Positions 56,587-62,760 of a stretch of 64,000 nucleotides of DNA are shown in pieces; position 1 is the stretch's first letter; every line of letters starts with the position of its first letter. The translations under genes and the position numbers were made by a program. Under the pieces are notes generated by a model. The model ran no database searches. It saw nothing but the letters and a program-made list of their open reading frames with translations, and was not told the origin of the DNA. The stretch comes from Gloeobacter morelensis MG652769 (GTDB lineage Bacteria; Cyanobacteriota; Cyanobacteriia; Gloeobacterales; Gloeobacteraceae): assembly GCF_021018745.1 (NCBI RefSeq), contig NZ_CP063845.1, positions 1,674,001 through 1,738,000 of the forward strand, given 5' to 3'.

Positions 56587-57531
56587 ATGCCGATAGAGCC
56601 AGTCAATTCAAATTCTTCCAGCTGGCCGGAGTGGGCTAATCCTGTTTTGCAAGGATTATTTGGACTTGGCTCTGCTTATATGACGGCGTATTTTACCCGG
56701 GCAATAGCAGAGTTCAATTTCCGATCATCTTCCAAAGACTTGATTAAGTTTGTTCCGCCAGTCAGGCTCATCTATATTAATCATACTGTGACACCTCCTC
56801 TCAAGAGTGGGGAAAAATTTAAATATATAGGTACTACACTTCTTATCTTATTTTGTTTTACTGTTCTTATTGCTTTTCCCTCGATTTTTCCTAAAGAATT
56901 TCAAGCTGCAGCCAATACTAACTGGCTGTCCTACGCCAACTATATCGTGACAACACTATTTTGTTTCGCCATATTTATTCTACGAGTCGTCAATTACATT
57001 GATTTGGATAAACGGTACGGACCAGAAGCCAGAATTGAGCTTGAATCAGAACATGAGCATGTTTTATTTGTATGCCGCAAAGCCTTAAGAGCGATTGGCG
57101 CAAGTGTGACACTTGTTGAAACATTTGAAACGGAGAGTGGTCGTATTGGTGCGAAGGTGAACACTGGGCAAATGTTGATCATAGATGTTACTCGACAAAG
57201 TCGAGAGCCTTCAAAAAAGCAAAGGTACATCCTTAATGTAAGGGGAATCACACAAAATGCGCTGCATAGCGAATCCTCCAACAAAGGTAAAACACCAGGA
57301 ACTGATGGCATTCGTCCCTCTCCAGTCCACGGTCTGAACGTTAGTCGGTTTATTCAAGCTTTGAGCGATCTTGAAAAAAGTGAAAGCTTTGGTGAGGAAG
57401 TGTCAGAGCACAAAGTAAAACCAGAAATTGGAAAATTCAAACGCACATTTGGCTCGGCAAAAGGCTTGATCAAAGTTGCCACCGATTTTGACGCACCTTT
57501 GCCCGATGACATCATGAAACATTTTGAATGA
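56587..57531 (+). CDS. Membrane protein with VapB/DUF2281-like antitoxin tail
   Basis: The 314-residue protein is AT-rich compared with its neighbours. It has two transmembrane helices (about residues 80-101, KYIGTTLLILFCFTVLIAFP, and 116-137, YIVTTLFCFAIFILRVVNYI), a cytoplasmic alpha/beta domain at 150-225 (HVLFVCRKALRAIGASVTLV) and a C-terminal tail at 283-313 (KFKRTFGSAKGLIKVATDFD, then APLPDDIMKHF). The tail matches the ending of DUF2281-type antitoxins (GSAKGL..M..DFDxPL). Its TGA overlaps the ATG of the PIN toxin gene, as antitoxin genes usually do. This suggests an antitoxin built on a membrane anchor. The rest of the protein is not recognised. Confidence 0.75.
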   Translation: MPIEPVNSNSSSWPEWANPVLQGLFGLGSAYMTAYFTRAIAEFNFRSSSKDLIKFVPPVRLIYINHTVTPPLKSGEKFKYIGTTLLILFCFTVLIAFPSIFPKEFQAAANTNWLSYANYIVTTLFCFAIFILRVVNYIDLDKRYGPEARIELESEHEHVLFVCRKALRAIGASVTLVETFETESGRIGAKVNTGQMLIIDVTRQSREPSKKQRYILNVRGITQNALHSESSNKGKTPGTDGIRPSPVHGLNVSRFIQALSDLEKSESFGEEVSEHKVKPEIGKFKRTFGSAKGLIKVATDFDAPLPDDIMKHFE

Positions 57532-57914
57532 GCTATCTGCTCGATACCCATGCATTCCTTTGGTTCATTTCTGGTGATACGCGCCTTTCCACAAACGCAA
57601 GAACAATCATTGAGAACGAAGGCAATGAGATATATCTCAGCGTAGCCAGTATATGGGAAATATCTATCAAAGCGCGTCTGGGCAGACTCGAACTGATCGG
57701 TTCACCGGAGAAAGTGATCCAGGATAATATGGATTCAAACGGATTTATTTGTTTGCCTATCGAAAAGTCTCATGCACTCCAAATCTATAACTTGCCCGAC
57801 CACCATCGAGATCCCTTCGACAGAATTTTGATTGCACAAAGCCAAGTAGAAAGTTTGATTTTAATAACTACGGATTATCAAATTAAACAGTACAATATCG
57901 CCACGATTTGGTAA
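57528..57914 (+). CDS. VapC-family PIN-domain toxin
   Basis: The 128-residue protein has the PIN fold: LLDTHAFLWFISGD with Asp6, Glu45 in SIWEISIK, the acidic cluster DHHRDPFDRILIAQ with Asp95/98, and the last Asp in LILITTDYQIKQY. PIN toxins are Mg2+-dependent RNases that cut tRNA or rRNA. It starts inside the stop of the membrane antitoxin-like gene (ATGA), indicating coupled translation. It ends 7 bases before cobQ. Confidence 0.92.
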   Translation: MSYLLDTHAFLWFISGDTRLSTNARTIIENEGNEIYLSVASIWEISIKARLGRLELIGSPEKVIQDNMDSNGFICLPIEKSHALQIYNLPDHHRDPFDRILIAQSQVESLILITTDYQIKQYNIATIW

Positions 57915-57921
57915 TTTTCCA

Positions 57922-59394
57922 GTGGCTGCTTTGATGGTTGTCGGCACCTCCTCCCACGCGGGCAAGTCGCTTCTGGTGACGGCGCTGGGTCGCCTGTTCT
58001 ACCGGCGCGGGGTCAAAGTCGCTCCCTTCAAAGGCCAGAATATGGCCCTCAATGCCTACGTCACCGCCGAAGGCCACGAAATCGGCCACGCCCAGGCGGT
58101 GCAGGCTTGGGCCTGCGGGTTGGAGCCCAGCGTGGCGATGAATCCGATTTTGCTCAAGCCCCAGGGCAATATGACCAGCCAGGTGATCTTGAAGGGTAGG
58201 CCCGCCGGGGTGTGCGGGGCCGTCGATTACTACCGCGACTACTTCGAACCTGGCTGGCAGGCGGTGGTGGAGGCACTTGTCGAGTTGCAGTCGCAGTACG
58301 AACTGGTGATCTGCGAGGGAGCGGGCAGTCCGGCGGAGGTCAACCTGCGCCACCGGGATCTGACCAACATGCGCGTCGCATTGCACCTGGGAGCGCCCAC
58401 GCTGCTGGTCACCGACATCGACCGGGGAGGCGCCCTTGCTCACGTCGTCGGTACTTTGCAGGTGCTGCCCTCCGAGGAGCGCGCCCTCATCAAAGGCATC
58501 GTGATCAACAAGTTTCGCGGTTCGCTTGCACTGTTGCAGCCGGGCCTCGACTGGCTTGCCCAATACACCGGCGTGCCGGTGGTGGGTGTGCTGCCGTGGC
58601 TGGAGATAGCCCTGCCCGAGGAAGATTCAATGGGTTTGTTCGATCGGCGTGGATCGCGCCAACAGGCGCAACTGGAGATAGTTGTGATCCGCCTGCCGCG
58701 CATCGCCAATTTCACGGATTTCGACGCCTTGGAAGCAGAACCCACCGTCCGGGTGCGCTACGTGAGCCCCGACGGACAACTGGGCCATCCAGACGCGATC
58801 ATCCTGCCGGGATCAAAAGCCACCATCGCCGACTTGCTTACCCTCGAAGCGAGCGGTATGGCTGCGCAAATCCGGGCTTATCCGGGAGTGATCCTGGGAA
58901 TCTGCGGCGGTCTGCAGATGCTGGGAAGAACCATCGACGATCCTGAAGGATTTGAAGGCCGCCCCGGCCGCTATCTCGGCCTTGGACTCATCAAGGCCAC
59001 AACTGTTTTCGATTCGCTCAAGACCACCCGGCAGGTGCAGGTCGAATCGCGTCTGCCGGCCGGCGAGTCCGTCGTCGGTTACGAAATTCATCAGGGGCAG
59101 ACAGCCTTTGATCCTACCCTCGAAGCGCTGTTTGCCGATCCCCAGCTCGGAGTGGTCAGCAGTAATCGCCGCGTCTGGGGTACCTACTTACACGGCCTGT
59201 TGGACAACCACGCCTGGCGTCGCCACTGGCTCAACACGCTTCGGGAGCGCCGGGGATTGCCACCCCTCCCTATGCTGAGCGGCCATTACCGCGAACAGCG
59301 CGAGGAGATGTTCGAGCGTCTCGCCGACGCCTGGGAACCCCATCTGCCGATCGATGGGTTTGCCCAGTTGGCCGGGTTTGCCTCCCAGGTGTAA
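57922..59394 (+). CDS. cobQ: Cobyric acid synthase
   Basis: The 490-residue enzyme amidates adenosylcobyrinic diamide at four side chains in cobalamin synthesis. It has the N-terminal P-loop-like VVGTSSHAGKSLLVTALGRL, PFKGQNMALNAYVT, the GPSCEGAGSPAEVNL-like core (ICEGAGSPAEVNLRHRDLTN) and the C-terminal class I glutaminase with Cys in VILGICGGLQMLG and the His in GTYLHGLLDN. The start is a GTG. About 80 bases of its 3' end are repeated twice downstream (see repeats at 60997 and 62696). Confidence 0.95.
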   Translation: MAALMVVGTSSHAGKSLLVTALGRLFYRRGVKVAPFKGQNMALNAYVTAEGHEIGHAQAVQAWACGLEPSVAMNPILLKPQGNMTSQVILKGRPAGVCGAVDYYRDYFEPGWQAVVEALVELQSQYELVICEGAGSPAEVNLRHRDLTNMRVALHLGAPTLLVTDIDRGGALAHVVGTLQVLPSEERALIKGIVINKFRGSLALLQPGLDWLAQYTGVPVVGVLPWLEIALPEEDSMGLFDRRGSRQQAQLEIVVIRLPRIANFTDFDALEAEPTVRVRYVSPDGQLGHPDAIILPGSKATIADLLTLEASGMAAQIRAYPGVILGICGGLQMLGRTIDDPEGFEGRPGRYLGLGLIKATTVFDSLKTTRQVQVESRLPAGESVVGYEIHQGQTAFDPTLEALFADPQLGVVSSNRRVWGTYLHGLLDNHAWRRHWLNTLRERRGLPPLPMLSGHYREQREEMFERLADAWEPHLPIDGFAQLAGFASQV

Positions 59395-59479
59395 CAAGCG
59401 ATTAATGCTCCCATCTATTCTGTTTGCATATTTTGTTGCTGTGGGCAGCGAGAAAAGAGAAAAACTTCTCAGGAATATC

Positions 59480-59508
59480 TTGACAAAAATATATTCTTCG
59501 CATAGGCT
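59480..59508 (+). promoter_or_regulatory. Promoter of effector-like gene 1
   Basis: TTGACA (59480-59485) and CATAGGCT near 59501 stand about 30 bases before the first gene. The same TTGACAAAAATATATTCTTC stretch recurs upstream of gene 2. Confidence 0.5.
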
Positions 59509-59537
59509 CTGGAGGAGCAACTCTCTGCAGGTAGGCC

Positions 59538-60719
59538 ATGGAAGAAAAGTATTTTCTTCAGAACGAGTCAGATAGCAGTGGAGATGCCGCCTACATCGGT
59601 ACATTGGGTGAAGAAGGCGCACAAGTTAATGCTTTCAGCCAGAACGGTGAGTACAGCTATGGTAGCGACGGCAACCAGAATGTGTTGTGGGATCAGGGCA
59701 GCGACTACTACAGCGCGCAAAATCTGTATGCAAGCGAGGACGGCAGTAGTCTTGACAGTGGCACTGGCAGTACCAACTTCGGCAACTTTGAGAACGCATG
59801 GATAAGCGGCTCAGCGAGTCTATTCGACAATGAACAAGACATTGACACCAACTCAGATGTCTATGACAGCATTGCCCAGGGAGTGAGTGGTCTCGATTTT
59901 GACTTCGACAGCTTCTCCGATGCAAATGGCACGGTGTCCGCTACCAACGCGGATAGTCCGAACAGCAACTACCCAGGCACAGATACTTACGGCGCGATGA
60001 ACGACGATGGCTATAGACTACTACCGGGGGCCAGCGCCGTCACCGGCTCAGCTATCCCTCAATTCGAACAAGCAGCTACTGACCAAGATCTACCACTCGC
60101 TGCAGACGAACTACCCGTTGTTGACGCGCAAATTGAAGTTGAAAACGATATCCACGCGCTTTTGGTAAGCAGCGGCGAACAAGCGTCGATGGCCTTCTCG
60201 CTACCACAGGATGCCAGTGCAGATTTTATGAACGATTCCAGCGTGATGGCTATTGCCAAGTGGGATGAATTGGGTGGTAGTTCGAATGGGCAAACTGATA
60301 GTTGGAACGCTGACGAACTGGATGTAATCGCAGGCAGGCTACCTGCAGGTCCAAACGGCTATCCGGACGATAAGACCTGCAGGCTGGCGCATGAGTTGGA
60401 ACAAAAATATCCGGATACACCACAACAGAAACGCAGAGAAGAGGAGCGTAGGTCGATGGAGCAGATAACTTATCCAGGAGCAGGCGGTATGCTGGGCACC
60501 ATTGTCGGCAGCGGCCTGACAGGTGCGGCGGCAGCCTCTGCAGCGGGTCCCTTAGGTGGTGGAATCGGTGGACTCGTCGGGGGTGCAATAGGTGGGCTCG
60601 CCGGTACAATAGCTGGTGAACAGGCGCGCCAGGATAAAGTGTGGGTTGAGGATGCCTACAAACATTGTGAAGAACAAGGAACCCAAGCACCCTGGACTAG
60701 ACCAGAATCCCCACGATAG
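59538..60719 (+). CDS. Acidic Ser/Gly-rich effector-like protein 1 with glycine-zipper C-terminus
   Basis: The 393-residue protein matches no known family by eye. The first 125 residues (SSGDAAYIGTLGEEGAQV, FSQNGEYSYGSDGNQNVLWD) are acidic, low in basic residues and about 80 percent identical to gene 2. The middle (130-270) is unique. The C-terminal part has a pair of Cys (KTCRLAHELEQ and AYKHCEEQG) flanking a glycine zipper at about 319-365 (GGMLGTIVGSGLTGAAAASA, GGGIGGLVGGAIGGLAGTIA), able to insert in membranes. No signal peptide is seen. It is followed at 3 bases by a small membrane protein, in the pattern of effector plus immunity. Confidence 0.7.
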   Translation: MEEKYFLQNESDSSGDAAYIGTLGEEGAQVNAFSQNGEYSYGSDGNQNVLWDQGSDYYSAQNLYASEDGSSLDSGTGSTNFGNFENAWISGSASLFDNEQDIDTNSDVYDSIAQGVSGLDFDFDSFSDANGTVSATNADSPNSNYPGTDTYGAMNDDGYRLLPGASAVTGSAIPQFEQAATDQDLPLAADELPVVDAQIEVENDIHALLVSSGEQASMAFSLPQDASADFMNDSSVMAIAKWDELGGSSNGQTDSWNADELDVIAGRLPAGPNGYPDDKTCRLAHELEQKYPDTPQQKRREEERRSMEQITYPGAGGMLGTIVGSGLTGAAAASAAGPLGGGIGGLVGGAIGGLAGTIAGEQARQDKVWVEDAYKHCEEQGTQAPWTRPESPR

Positions 60720-60722
60720 GCG

Positions 60723-60995
60723 ATGCAAACGTTGGATGCATTAAAGCCGGAGTTTTTTGGCTGGGCCATTATCAATGGAGCCCTGATCGCAGTTGCGACT
60801 CAGCTGGCCTGGGCTCAAGCAGGCCTCAAGTGGTACAAATCGGTTGTCATTGTTGCTTTGCTTGTCGCACTACTGGCTGCAGGATGGAGCAGCTGGCTGA
60901 ATCCGAGAGGGACAGCGTTCTCCGTGGGGCTGTTTGTCTGTGCTATGGCTATTCTCTGGCCGCTGTACAGGCGATTATTTTCAGCACGATGGTAA
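60723..60995 (+). CDS. Small three-helix membrane protein, candidate immunity protein 1
   Basis: The 90-residue hydrophobic protein has three helices (FFGWAIINGALIAVATQLAW, WYKSVVIVALLVALLAAGWS, GTAFSVGLFVCAMAILWPLY) and a basic end. It starts 3 bases after gene 1. An almost identical copy is encoded at 62431, and a diverged relative at 62165. The position and hydrophobicity fit an immunity protein against a membrane-active partner; that function is inferred. Confidence 0.75.
   Translation: MQTLDALKPEFFGWAIINGALIAVATQLAWAQAGLKWYKSVVIVALLVALLAAGWSSWLNPRGTAFSVGLFVCAMAILWPLYRRLFSARW
60744..60976 (+). repeat. 233-bp perfect direct repeat, copy 1
   Basis: Identical over 233 bases to 62446-62678 (offset 1702). 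It covers most of the small membrane-protein gene. Confidence 0.9.
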
Positions 60996-60996
60996 C

Positions 60997-61219
60997 GAGC
61001 GTCTCGCCGACGCTGGGAACCCCATCTGCCGATCGATGGGTTTGCCCAGTGGGCCAGGTTCGCCTCCTAGGTGTAATGAATGATTGATTGATGCTCCTAT
61101 CTATTTGCATACTGTCGTTGCTTTGCGCAGCGAGAAAAGAGAAAAATTTCTCAGAGATATCTTGACAAAAATATATTCTTCGTATAAATTCCGGGGGAGG
61201 GATCCTCTGCAGGTGGACC
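60997..61219 (+). repeat. Duplicate of cobQ 3' end and intergenic promoter
   Basis: From GAGCGTCTCGCCGACGC at 60997 this follows the end of cobQ (59314 on) with scattered differences, and then the intergenic region up to gene 2. It marks the junction of a tandem duplication. Several point changes, including loss of the cobQ frame, show that it is not coding here. Confidence 0.85.
61162..61188 (+). promoter_or_regulatory. Promoter of effector-like gene 2
   Basis: TTGACA (61162-61167), then TATAAA (61183-61188) at 15-base spacing (TAAATT gives 17). It lies in the duplicated promoter segment and is closer to consensus than that of gene 1. Confidence 0.6.
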
Positions 61220-62161
61220 GTGGAAGAGGAGTATGTCTTTCAGAGCGAGCCAGATAGCAGTGGAGATGCCAGCTACATCGGCACATTTGGTGAAAAAGGC
61301 GCACAAGTTGAGGCTTTCAGCCAGAACGGCGAGTACAGCTACGGTAGCGACGACAACCAGAATGTGTTGTGGGATCAAAGCAGCGACGACTACGGCGCAC
61401 AAAATCTGTATGCAAGCGAGGACGGCAGTAGTCTTGACGGTGGCAGTGGCAGTACCAACTTCGGCAACTTTGAGAACGCATGGATGAGCGGATCAGCGAG
61501 TCTGTTCGACGATCAGCAAGACACAGATTCCAATCCAGATGTTTACGACGGCATTGCCCAGGGAGTGAGTAGTGTCGATTTCGGCTTCGATACTTACGGC
61601 GCGATCAGCGACGATGGTTACGGGCGGCCACCGGGAGCCGACAGTTTTACGGACTTGCTTGCAGGTAAGCCGAAAAGCCAAGGAGAAGAACGCTTACAGT
61701 TCGATGTGTACGGCAATATTCAAGGTGACGGACTGGAAGCGCCAACCATTCCTAATGGTGGAACTCCTATGGAGACCCTCAACCCGAGAGGATATCCGAC
61801 TGACCAAGAGTGCCGGGATTTGTACTGGAACGAGCAATCTGACTTGAGAAATGGCTTTGAGAAGCGGGAAGAAGAACATCAAAAAAGCATGGAGCAGGCA
61901 ATGTACCCAACTGCTGGAGGCATCATAGGGAGTACTATCGGCAGCGCTATTGGAAAAGTTCCTGGAATGATCATCGGCACTTTGGCAGGGACCTATTTGG
62001 GCGAGAAGATTCGGCAGGGCAAACAAGATCTTGACGATGCACAGGATTACTGCCGTGAACATGGCAAACACGCGCCTTATGTGGAGTTCGATTATGAGGG
62101 TGGGCCTTCTCCTGAACAGGCAGGGCCGCCAGCTCCAAATCCAAAACAGTCCAATAAATAA
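61220..62161 (+). CDS. Acidic Ser/Gly-rich effector-like protein 2 with glycine-zipper C-terminus
   Basis: The 313-residue paralog of gene 1 shares the N-terminal 125 residues (SSGDASYIGTFGEKGAQV; NLYASEDGSSLD; STNFGNFENAWMSGSASLFD) but lacks most of the long middle part. The C-terminal domain keeps the Cys pair (DQECRDLYW, DYCREHGKH) and a glycine zipper of different sequence (GGIIGSTIGSAIGKVPGMII, GTLAGTYLGEKI), plus a Pro-rich tail. Conserved front and diverged back is the hallmark of polymorphic effectors. The start is a GTG. It is followed by two small membrane proteins. Confidence 0.7.
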   Translation: MEEEYVFQSEPDSSGDASYIGTFGEKGAQVEAFSQNGEYSYGSDDNQNVLWDQSSDDYGAQNLYASEDGSSLDGGSGSTNFGNFENAWMSGSASLFDDQQDTDSNPDVYDGIAQGVSSVDFGFDTYGAISDDGYGRPPGADSFTDLLAGKPKSQGEERLQFDVYGNIQGDGLEAPTIPNGGTPMETLNPRGYPTDQECRDLYWNEQSDLRNGFEKREEEHQKSMEQAMYPTAGGIIGSTIGSAIGKVPGMIIGTLAGTYLGEKIRQGKQDLDDAQDYCREHGKHAPYVEFDYEGGPSPEQAGPPAPNPKQSNK

Positions 62162-62164
62162 CCT

Positions 62165-62428
62165 ATGGATCTAGATCTCATCAAGCCAGAATTCATTGGA
62201 TGGGCTGTTGCTAACGGCGGTACAATTTCCGTCGCAACCCAGATAGCTAAAGCTCAAACGGGGCAACCCTGGAGCAAAACAGTAATAGCTTTCTCTGTCC
62301 TGGTGATAATTTTGGCTTCAGGGTTTAGCGCCCTTCGTAGTCCTCTAGGAACGGTAGTCACCGTCAGTGGTTCTGCCCTTGTCGTAATTCTCCTCTGGCC
62401 GCTCTACAAAAGAGTGCTGAGTCGCTGA
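62165..62428 (+). CDS. Small membrane protein, candidate immunity protein 2
   Basis: The 87-residue protein has three helices (FIGWAVANGGTISVATQIAK, KTVIAFSVLVIILASGFSAL, VVTVSGSALVVILLWPLYKR). It is homologous to, but well diverged from, its neighbours, matching the divergence of the C-terminal domains of the two large proteins. It begins 3 bases after gene 2. Confidence 0.75.
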   Translation: MDLDLIKPEFIGWAVANGGTISVATQIAKAQTGQPWSKTVIAFSVLVIILASGFSALRSPLGTVVTVSGSALVVILLWPLYKRVLSR

Positions 62429-62430
62429 GA

Positions 62431-62694
62431 ATGCATTCTGAATTGAAGCCGGAGTTTTTTGGCTGGGCCATTATCAATGGAGCCCTGATCGCAGTTGCGA
62501 CTCAGCTGGCCTGGGCTCAAGCAGGCCTCAAGTGGTACAAATCGGTTGTCATTGTTGCTTTGCTTGTCGCACTACTGGCTGCAGGATGGAGCAGCTGGCT
62601 GAATCCGAGAGGGACAGCGTTCTCCGTGGGGCTGTTTGTCTGTGCTATGGCTATTCTCTGGCCGCTGTACAGGCGATTTTCGACACGATGGTAA
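62431..62694 (+). CDS. Small membrane protein, copy of candidate immunity protein 1
   Basis: The 87-residue protein is nearly identical to that at 60723 but has a different start and the end RRFSTRW. It has no large partner gene of its own, so it looks like an orphan kept after gene 2 and its own small protein were inserted or replaced. It begins 2 bases after the preceding stop. Confidence 0.8.
   Translation: MHSELKPEFFGWAIINGALIAVATQLAWAQAGLKWYKSVVIVALLVALLAAGWSSWLNPRGTAFSVGLFVCAMAILWPLYRRFSTRW
62446..62678 (+). repeat. 233-bp perfect direct repeat, copy 2
   Basis: Identical to 60744-60976; see there. Confidence 0.9.
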
Positions 62695-62695
62695 C

Positions 62696-62760
62696 GAGCG
62701 TCTCGCCGACGCTGGGAACCCCATCTGCCGGTCGATGGGTTTGCCAGGTGGGCTGGGTTG
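62696..62760 (+). repeat. Third copy of cobQ 3' end
   Basis: GAGCGTCTCGCCGACGC and the following roughly 45 bases resemble the end of cobQ again, with decay near CCAGGTGGGCTGGG. It marks the right border of the duplicated region, just before lysC. Confidence 0.8.

What the first reader, a model, noticed from the sequence alone, without database searches (positions are those of the whole stretch)
59314..62760. Possible new polymorphic effector/immunity locus: two acidic glycine-zipper proteins with three small membrane proteins
Two large genes share an N-terminal 125 residues (about 80 percent identical by eye) but differ in length and C-terminal domain. Each ends with a Cys-flanked glycine zipper that could insert into membranes and is followed within 3 bases by a three-helix membrane protein. 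The second unit carries its own diverged small protein and then an orphan copy of the first one. Conserved front, variable toxic-looking back and retained orphan immunity genes are the known logic of polymorphic toxins (CDI, Rhs), but the N-terminus here matches no family that I recognise. Toxin activity and the secretion route are inference.
Basis: partly seen in the sequence, partly recalled or inferred. Interest (0 to 1): 0.85.

Follow-up and report, generated by a model that had tools for sequence, protein, structure and literature searches.

The report
Gloeobacter glycine-zipper effector/immunity gene cassettes
A thylakoid-less cyanobacterium carries small gene pairs that come and go between species, each a long acidic protein ending in a membrane-seeking glycine zipper plus a membrane protein, and they are shuffled and displaced the way bacteria shuffle toxins and their antidotes, although no toxicity has been tested.

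Summary
L1 and L2 are alike in the first ~164 columns (third positions 114/139 identical) and saturated beyond (47/155; Fisher 2e-19). The small genes split the same way: S1/S2 54% nt, S1/orphan S1' 97.7%. So an L back half plus its small gene has one history and the old small gene remained. I found 14 intact L genes in three of four Gloeobacter genomes; all 14 have a membrane-protein gene 2-31 bp behind (11 S family, 3 STM3941-like). Four further S genes are orphans. L and S distances correlate (Mantel r 0.49, p 0.006, 10 pairs). Two cassettes are absent from clean sites in relatives; three independent cassettes lie between 36-66-bp direct repeats.

One correction: across loci the C-terminal Cys-zipper-Cys domain is the conserved part. 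The N-terminus is acidic, K/R-poor, probably disordered, alike only in composition, without recognised export signal.

Most likely a genus-restricted polymorphic membrane-active toxin/immunity family that works like glycine-zipper toxins (TelE/EsxX, CdzC/D). It belongs to no named family tested. Toxicity, immunity and delivery are inferred; a contractile injection system is present but unlinked.

The parts
59313..59378 (+). direct repeat copy 0: 3' end of cobQ (ORF 57922-59394; gene named by eye)
   Evidence: blastn self-comparison: 59313-59378 matches 62695-62759 at 91%; such a pair also flanks the single cassette in G001 (87.7% over 65 bp)
59435..59537 (+). upstream region shared by L1 and L2 (contains a TTGACA -35-like sequence, read by eye)
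   Evidence: part of the 300-nt direct repeat 59435-59734 / 61117-61416, 87%
59538..60719 (+). L1, 393 aa putative effector; acidic N-terminus to about aa 270, Cys-zipper-Cys domain after
60339..60716 (+). L1 C-terminal Cys-glycine zipper-Cys domain
   Evidence: alignment A3; profile E 4.3e-52, L1 being one of the rows of the profile
60723..60995 (+). S1, 90 aa three-helix membrane protein, putative immunity to L1
60996..61060 (+). direct repeat copy 1 (cobQ 3' end), junction of the tandem unit
   Evidence: five-way alignment
61220..62161 (+). L2, 313 aa putative effector; N-terminus like L1, back half of different history
61589..61639 (+). last stretch of L2 still alike to L1 (80% to 59982-60032); identity breaks after it
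61769..62158 (+). L2 C-terminal Cys-glycine zipper-Cys domain
   Evidence: A3, profile E 2.5e-39, L2 being a row of the profile; Pfam Gly-zipper_Omp 25.7 bits over cut-off 25
62165..62428 (+). S2, 87 aa three-helix membrane protein, putative immunity to L2
62431..62694 (+). S1', orphan near-copy of S1 left behind S2
   Evidence: 255/261 nt identical to S1
62695..62759 (+). direct repeat copy 2 (cobQ 3' end), right boundary of the array

Best explanation
L and S form a polymorphic effector/immunity family confined, as far as searched, to Gloeobacter. L is made without a recognised export signal; its long acidic, basic-poor, probably disordered N-terminus serves delivery or solubility (inferred). 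Its C-terminal Cys-zipper-Cys domain inserts as a helical hairpin into the membrane of a competitor and depolarises it (inferred from known zipper toxins). S, a three-helix membrane protein encoded at once behind L, protects the producer (inferred). L back half and S diversify and recombine as one block, which leaves old S genes as orphans (the block is shown for this locus by sequence; the event is inferred). Several cassettes lie behind a gene end, between short direct repeats of that end; unequal recombination between such repeats best explains the tandem array here (repeats shown, event inferred).
For: Third-position identity L1/L2 114/139 up to column 164 and 47/155 after, whereas L1(window) and L1(G001) are even, 154/164 and 218/229. 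S1/S2 54% nt, S1/S1' 97.7% nt. 14 of 14 intact L genes have a membrane-protein gene 2-31 bp behind. Mantel L-domain against S: r 0.69 p 0.0008 (11 pairs), r 0.49 p 0.006 (10), r 0.40 p 0.03 (9, without the L1 pair). Four orphan S genes; the two in a row in G003 at 1206 kb are nearest (35%, 45%) to S of the 245-kb locus of G000. Partner type varies: 3 of 14 L have an STM3941-like protein instead (22.9 and 17.7 bits for the two scanned, cut-off 40). Cassette absent with flanks together in G002 (773-kb site) and in G001 and G002 (3447-kb site). Relics at the 921-kb site: S remnant without L in G000, L remnant in G002. Flanking repeats at three independent loci, E 2e-19 to 3e-12 in 500-bp flanks, against 0 of 300 random pairs of 500-bp flanks at E below 1e-9. 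Known zipper toxins mostly have polytopic membrane immunity proteins (passages of PMC12744356 and PMC10434224), and CdzI has three predicted TM segments (passages of PMC5380434).
Against: No toxicity or protection assay exists. No secretion gene is linked. The zipper is the least confident part of both models (pLDDT 33-53 in its 10-residue blocks), so no L-S interface can be claimed. Hydrophobicity of the zipper is modest (best 19-residue mean 0.9-1.7 across the 14). The correlation of L and S is moderate and rests on 9-11 pairs. The nearest neighbour of the L2 domain is the 946-kb locus, that of S2 is S1 of G001, so no donor of the block was found. Only 3 of 12 independent loci tested show flanking repeats. 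S at 245 kb has a weak match to Peptidase_M50B (20.5 bits, cut-off 26). In the known cases TelE and EsxX the cytoplasmic antidote is a soluble protein, not the membrane one (passages of PMC12744356, PMC10434224). Genus-only distribution is also what a lineage-specific structural protein would show.
Confidence: 0.6

Rival explanations
1. L and S are an addiction or abortive-infection pair that acts inside the producing cell: L depolarises the own membrane when S is lost or a phage strikes.
For: Cassette gain and loss and short flanking repeats fit a selfish or defence pair; no recognised export signal; tight gene pair.
Against: No PADLOC match for the two L and the two of three S that gave none; S1 only weakly to a 4TM effector and a SAVED-TM model (E 0.053 and 0.071). 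Orphan S genes and diversifying pairs fit warfare with relatives better. An acidic N-terminus of about 80-470 aa has no place in the usual small membrane toxins (recalled).
Confidence: 0.17
2. L is a structural or stress protein of the envelope (glycine-zipper protein of the OmpA/17-kDa kind) with a small membrane partner; not a toxin.
For: Weak profile matches to Gly-zipper_Omp, Rick_17kDa_Anti, TraT (mor_499: E 4e-5 over residues 73-173), PRK11280, PdsO and YiaD-like models; genus restriction.
Against: No hydrophobic start in the reading frames as I set them (at 773 kb an upstream start would add a hydrophobic stretch); apart from TraT in mor_499 the matches cover the zipper and little else, and only one passes its cut-off; presence/absence between close species, block exchange and orphan S genes do not fit a housekeeping part.
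Confidence: 0.18
3. L1 and L2 are old tandem copies whose front halves were made alike by gene conversion; there was no block replacement. (A rival about the history only; not exclusive of the effector reading.)
For: The same step in identity would result; S1/S1' (97.7%) are much closer than the fronts of L1/L2 (87%), so the parts have several ages.
Against: Does not by itself explain why S2 shares the divergence of the L2 back half while S1' behind it equals S1; both versions still make L-back plus S one evolutionary unit.
Confidence: 0.25

Closest known systems
T7SSb LXG toxins with C-terminal glycine zipper: TelE/TipE, EsxX/ExiABCD
   Same: C-terminal extended glycine zipper; membrane-depolarising activity in the known case; polytopic membrane immunity pair (ExiCD) also found as orphans in non-producers (passages of PMC12744356, PMC10434224)
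   Different: No LXG match in the 9 L proteins scanned; acidic disordered front; two conserved Cys around the zipper; one three-helix partner of 83-130 aa; Gram-negative cyanobacterium; TipE and ExiAB are soluble
Cdz system of Caulobacter (CdzC, CdzD, CdzI)
   Same: Glycine zipper killers with a small immunity protein of three predicted TM segments (passages of PMC5380434)
   Different: CdzC/D are 86 and 84 aa with an RTX-like leader, encoded with type I secretion genes; L is 189-657 aa, one L per paired S, no such leader recognised by eye
CDI ionophore toxins (CdiA-CT/CdiI)
   Same: Diversified cognate pairs of membrane-depolarising domain and immunity protein, typically about 30% identical within a group (abstract and passages of PMC11630599)
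   Different: L has no CdiA parts; the putative toxin domain is a zipper hairpin, not a five-helix bundle with entry domain
eCIS payloads with disordered N-terminal signal (PVC/Afp)
   Same: Long probably disordered N-terminus; Pvc16- and tube-like genes exist in G000 and a sheath gene in all 4 genomes
   Different: Known signals are 50-70 aa and lie almost entirely at the eCIS loci (passages of PMC11495950); L loci are scattered and none was found beside the sheath gene of G000

Membership tests
polymorphic toxin systems (in the broad sense) | toxin back half and immunity gene exchanged or diversified as one unit | tested here: met
   step in identity in L1/L2 with S1/S2 following it; S1' left behind; L/S distance correlation. 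Met for the sequences; that they are toxin and immunity is not shown
polymorphic toxin systems (in the broad sense) | shared N-terminal trafficking module joined to unrelated C-terminal toxins | tested here: not met
   across loci the C-domain is conserved and the N-terminus is alike only in composition
polymorphic toxin systems (in the broad sense) | toxic activity neutralised by the neighbour | not testable with these tools
   needs an expression assay
CDI (CdiA/CdiI) and Rhs | TPS/haemagglutinin repeats or YD repeats in the large protein | tested here: not met
   no such Pfam match at E <= 1 in the 9 of 14 L proteins scanned
T7SSb LXG toxins | N-terminal LXG domain | tested here: not met
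   no LXG match in the same 9 of 14 L proteins
Cdz-like bacteriocins | zipper peptide of under about 100 aa with type I secretion genes alongside | tested here: not met
   size not met: L is 189-657 aa; neighbours were not scanned for type I secretion genes
eCIS effectors | gene beside the eCIS cluster and N-terminal loading signal | tested here: inconclusive
   eCIS-type genes present; in the 20-kb stretch around the sheath gene of G000 the composition filter found only a 127-aa acidic ORF, no L; loading not testable; other genomes' eCIS surroundings not read
glycine-zipper lipoproteins / envelope proteins (Gly-zipper_Omp, Rick_17kDa) | signal peptide or lipobox before the zipper, profile score above cut-off | tested here: not met
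   no hydrophobic start in L1, L2 (hydropathy only, no signal-peptide predictor); of 9 L proteins scanned only L2 reaches a Pfam cut-off, by 0.7 bits

The most novel reading that the evidence does not exclude
Gloeobacter carries a cassette-borne arsenal of zipper toxins whose acidic disordered N-termini load them into its own contractile injection particle; cassettes insert at gene ends, duplicating some tens of bases, and amplify, swap modules and shed toxins by recombination between those repeats, with two unrelated membrane immunity families (three-helix S and STM3941-like).
Probability: 0.15. Interest if true: 0.8.

Novelty: new variant of a known kind. Interest (0 to 1): 0.62.

Why it matters
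If true, it would be an apparently undescribed family of diversifying effector/immunity pairs in an early-branching cyanobacterial lineage, with module exchange and a displaced immunity gene caught in one array. It offers small, cloneable cognate pairs for asking how a three-helix membrane protein recognises and blocks a zipper hairpin, and gives a candidate cargo set for the contractile injection system of thylakoid-less cyanobacteria.

Tried and rejected
Gloeobacter's known toxin as a link: PMC3482391 (one passage seen) names gll0213 of G. violaceus as an Ntox36 toxin. I took G001:204001-244000; no ORF of 110 aa or more passed a filter for an acidic, basic-poor start. The likely gene, a 1973-aa reverse-strand ORF, starts with a hydrophobic stretch; that it is gll0213 was not confirmed. 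Rejected as a relative.

Relatives outside the genus: one genome-contig scan with S2: 355 stretches matched a pattern, none confirmed (records close to the window's genome may be left out there). Plasmids with L2 and with S2, phages with L2: no match. Profile of S in 386 genomes of the phylum: 3 match, G000 and two at 2e-4; I read one of the two (L113), which overlaps a 456-aa ORF that looks like MurF (recalled), and take both as chance. Profile of the L domain: 37 of 386 genomes, G000 included, at E <= 1e-4, but no listed match outside G000 spans the whole profile (best span 21-115 of 128). I looked at six of those loci, + strand ORFs only: two showed the zipper ORF (L117, L122) and neither has a cysteine; for the other four that listing did not show it.

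Acidic N-terminus as a marker for further effectors: in 20 evenly spaced 20-kb stretches of G000 (400 kb, 1468 ORFs of 90 aa or more) 14 passed a loose filter, none like L by eye. In the 343 kb (12 stretches around known loci and the eCIS, the 40 kb above, the window) a stricter filter passed 17: 12 were L genes, 5 others; the 4879-kb L did not pass. The two filters differ, so the counts are not directly comparable.

Structure: PDB fold search with the L2-S2 model gave 62 matches at E <= 10 and none at E <= 0.001. Sequence profiles against PDB gave six weak hits each (L: best 0.036, a tape-measure protein; S: best 7.6e-4, designed WD-40 chains without a passing stretch), taken as chance. PHROGs: L1 8 families at E 2e-4 to 0.05 and L2 3, all over the zipper region, several of them phage tail proteins; S none.

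Rows handled by choice: hits between E 0.0018 and 0.56 were not examined and are not counted. mor_499 was found at E 0.052, was not listed, and is included for its anatomy only; it and the two other STM3941-type loci are not in the Mantel test. For the hydropathy count mor_773 was started at a downstream ATG (the longest ORF begins with a hydrophobic stretch). In some searches mor_245 was started one codon before its nearest ATG reading. For kil_2214 one search took the wrong first Cys, so its N-terminus is about 469 aa, not the 590 printed; my figures use 469. Species and several gene names (cobQ, aspartate kinase, MurF) are recalled or by eye; no call named the G genomes.
Full report
Observation. 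The five genes lie as described. L1 and L2 have fronts 77-78% alike and C-domains 45-47% alike. Along the codon alignment the third-position identity is 72-100% per 25-codon window up to column 149, 60% in the window that reaches column 169, and 16-48% after it; pooled, 114/139 against 47/155 (Fisher 2e-19), while L1(window) and L1(G001) show 154/164 and 218/229. S1/S2 are 54% alike in DNA, S1/S1' 97.7%, S1/S1(G001) 98.9%. Thus the back half of L and its S share one depth of divergence, the front and upstream region another (87% over 476 nt), and S1/S1' a third.

Neighbourhood. G001 (4,659,019 bp; by recalled length G. violaceus PCC 7421; the window genome by recalled length G. morelensis, G003 G. 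kilaueensis) has a single L1-S1 between cobQ and an aspartate-kinase-like gene, both named by eye. There too the cassette lies between two copies of the cobQ 3' end (65 bp, 87.7%). In the window a third copy stands at the junction of the two units. An unequal exchange between these repeats explains the tandem unit; this is inference.

Family. Profile searches with the C-domain (A3) and with S (A2) in the four Gloeobacter genomes, with the reading of the loci, gave 14 intact L genes: eight in G000 (L1, L2, and at 245, 499, 773, 946, 3447, 4879 kb), three in G001 (1883, 921, 2811 kb), three in G003 (1205, 1238, 2214 kb); in G002 (a draft) only fragments were found. mor_499 rests on anatomy. The S profile gave 15 S genes at E below 1e-20: 11 directly behind an L and 4 orphans, S1' and three in G003, two of them in a row. 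The other three L genes are followed by a larger membrane protein with weak similarity to the STM3941 family (22.9 bits for the 4879-kb and 17.7 bits for the 499-kb partner, cut-off 40; the third, at 2811 kb in G001, was not scanned and is read as the orthologue of the 4879-kb one). In all 14 the partner starts 2-31 bp after the L stop.

Anatomy of L. From N to C: about 79-469 residues that are acidic, poor in K/R and rich in N/Q/S/T/G and aromatics (with the correction for kil_2214 told under Tried and rejected); Cys; a charged helix; the zipper (4-13 motifs in the last 150 aa against 0.8-2.2 in shuffles, p 0.000 to 0.044, the weakest being mor_499); Cys; a tail. Five columns are invariant among the 11 domains aligned, both Cys and three glycines. 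The highest 15-residue mean hydropathy within the first 60 residues is below 1.0 in all 14 as I set the starts; no signal-peptide predictor was at hand. AlphaFold2 on L2 domain plus S2 in one chain: mean pLDDT 73.0, pTM 0.50; L1 plus S1: 67.2, 0.43. Both show helices around the zipper and a three-helix S; the zipper is uncertain and no contact between L and S can be claimed.

Pairing. Distances between L domains and between their S proteins correlate: r 0.69 (p 0.0008) for 11 pairs, 0.49 (p 0.006) without the G001 orthologue, 0.40 (p 0.03) without the L1 pair. The closest partner of the L2 domain is the 946-kb locus, that of S2 is S1 of G001, so the donor of the L2 block is not found. The two neighbouring orphan S genes of G003 are closest to S at 245 kb in G000 (35% and 45%).

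Turnover. 3447-kb cassette: in G001 the flanks are 39 bp apart, in G002 53 bp, without cassette. 773-kb cassette: in G002 the flank matches meet and overlap by 57 bp, a stretch that in G000 stands on either side of 1227 bp holding S and L; in G001 the flanks are in separate places. 946-kb cassette: no match in G001, G002 or G003 covers it; its flanks are in separate places in G001 and on separate contigs in G002, so there is no clean empty site. 921-kb site of G001: G000 keeps a 62-residue S remnant (71% identical) and no L, G002 a 49-residue L remnant (59%) and a weak S fragment (E 0.0025). Direct repeats flank three independent cassettes (cobQ site, 773, 946; 36-66 bp); the other nine independent loci show none within 2 kb at E below 1e-3. 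In 300 random pairs of 500-bp stretches from the G000 sample no repeat at E below 1e-9 was seen, best 2e-4, against 2e-19 to 3e-12 at the three loci with flanks of the same length.

Delivery. Nothing links L to a secretion route. All four genomes have a sheath-like gene (PF04984); that family also rings in the E. coli, B. subtilis and S. elongatus controls, so alone it proves little, but in G000 it lies with a Pvc16-like (2e-22) and a tube-like gene (1.2e-31), so a contractile injection system is likely. Payloads of PVC-type systems carry disordered N-terminal signals of 50-70 aa (passages of PMC11495950). Whether L is such a payload is open.

Comparison with the known. Glycine zipper toxins that depolarise or breach membranes, with polytopic membrane immunity in most cases, are known from T7SSb, T6SS and the Cdz system (passages read: PMC12744356, PMC10434224, PMC5380434); diversified ionophore/immunity pairs from CDI (abstract and passages of PMC11630599). 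A survey lists Gloeobacteria among the classes rich in toxin genes (passage of PMC10790787). L/S works like the zipper systems by anatomy and evolution but lacks the defining parts of each (membership table). Searches of the paper library for Gloeobacter with 'glycine zipper' (0 papers), with 'toxin' and 'immunity protein' (2 papers; passages of both seen), with 'contractile injection' (1 paper; passages seen) and for 'Gloeobacter morelensis' (4 papers, listing only), and for 'STM3941' with 'immunity' (0 papers), showed no description of this family; the library holds open-licence papers only.

Verdict. A recurrent, gained-and-lost, diversifying gene-pair family; effector/immunity is the best reading at about 0.6. 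That L back half plus S is one evolutionary block is the firmest part; that they are toxin and antidote is the part that needs the bench.

Noticed in passing
L146:4377-5193 (G000 about 524.4-525.2 kb, about 3 kb before the Pvc16-like gene): 127-aa acidic protein with two Cys in L-like surroundings (EQYCREQTG ... DDAYDYCIEQ), followed by a DUF7660 gene (PF24693, E 2.4e-10); possibly another effector/immunity type.
   Followed up: partly
L140:2533-3204 (G000 about 765.5 kb, some 7 kb from the 773-kb cassette): Acidic 223-aa ORF with a Gly/Ala-rich hydrophobic stretch, no Pfam match.
   Followed up: partly
L031:1339-1908 against L106:1217-2062: The 4879-kb L gene reads as 189 aa, its G001 counterpart as 281 aa; the upstream part in G000 may be frameshifted or the start mis-set.
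   Followed up: no
L030:1532-1650: 119-bp stretch before the 3447-kb L gene has copies elsewhere in G002 (97%) and G001 (85%); may be a repeat element or cassette leader.
   Followed up: no
L057:1551-2127, L056:1900-2710: In G003 two and three S genes stand in a row behind one L, that is, small arrays of putative immunity genes.
   Followed up: partly
window 57528-57914: PIN-like toxin ORF (128 aa) beside a 314-aa ORF just upstream of cobQ; looks like a separate, ordinary toxin gene (recalled resemblance, not searched).
   Followed up: no
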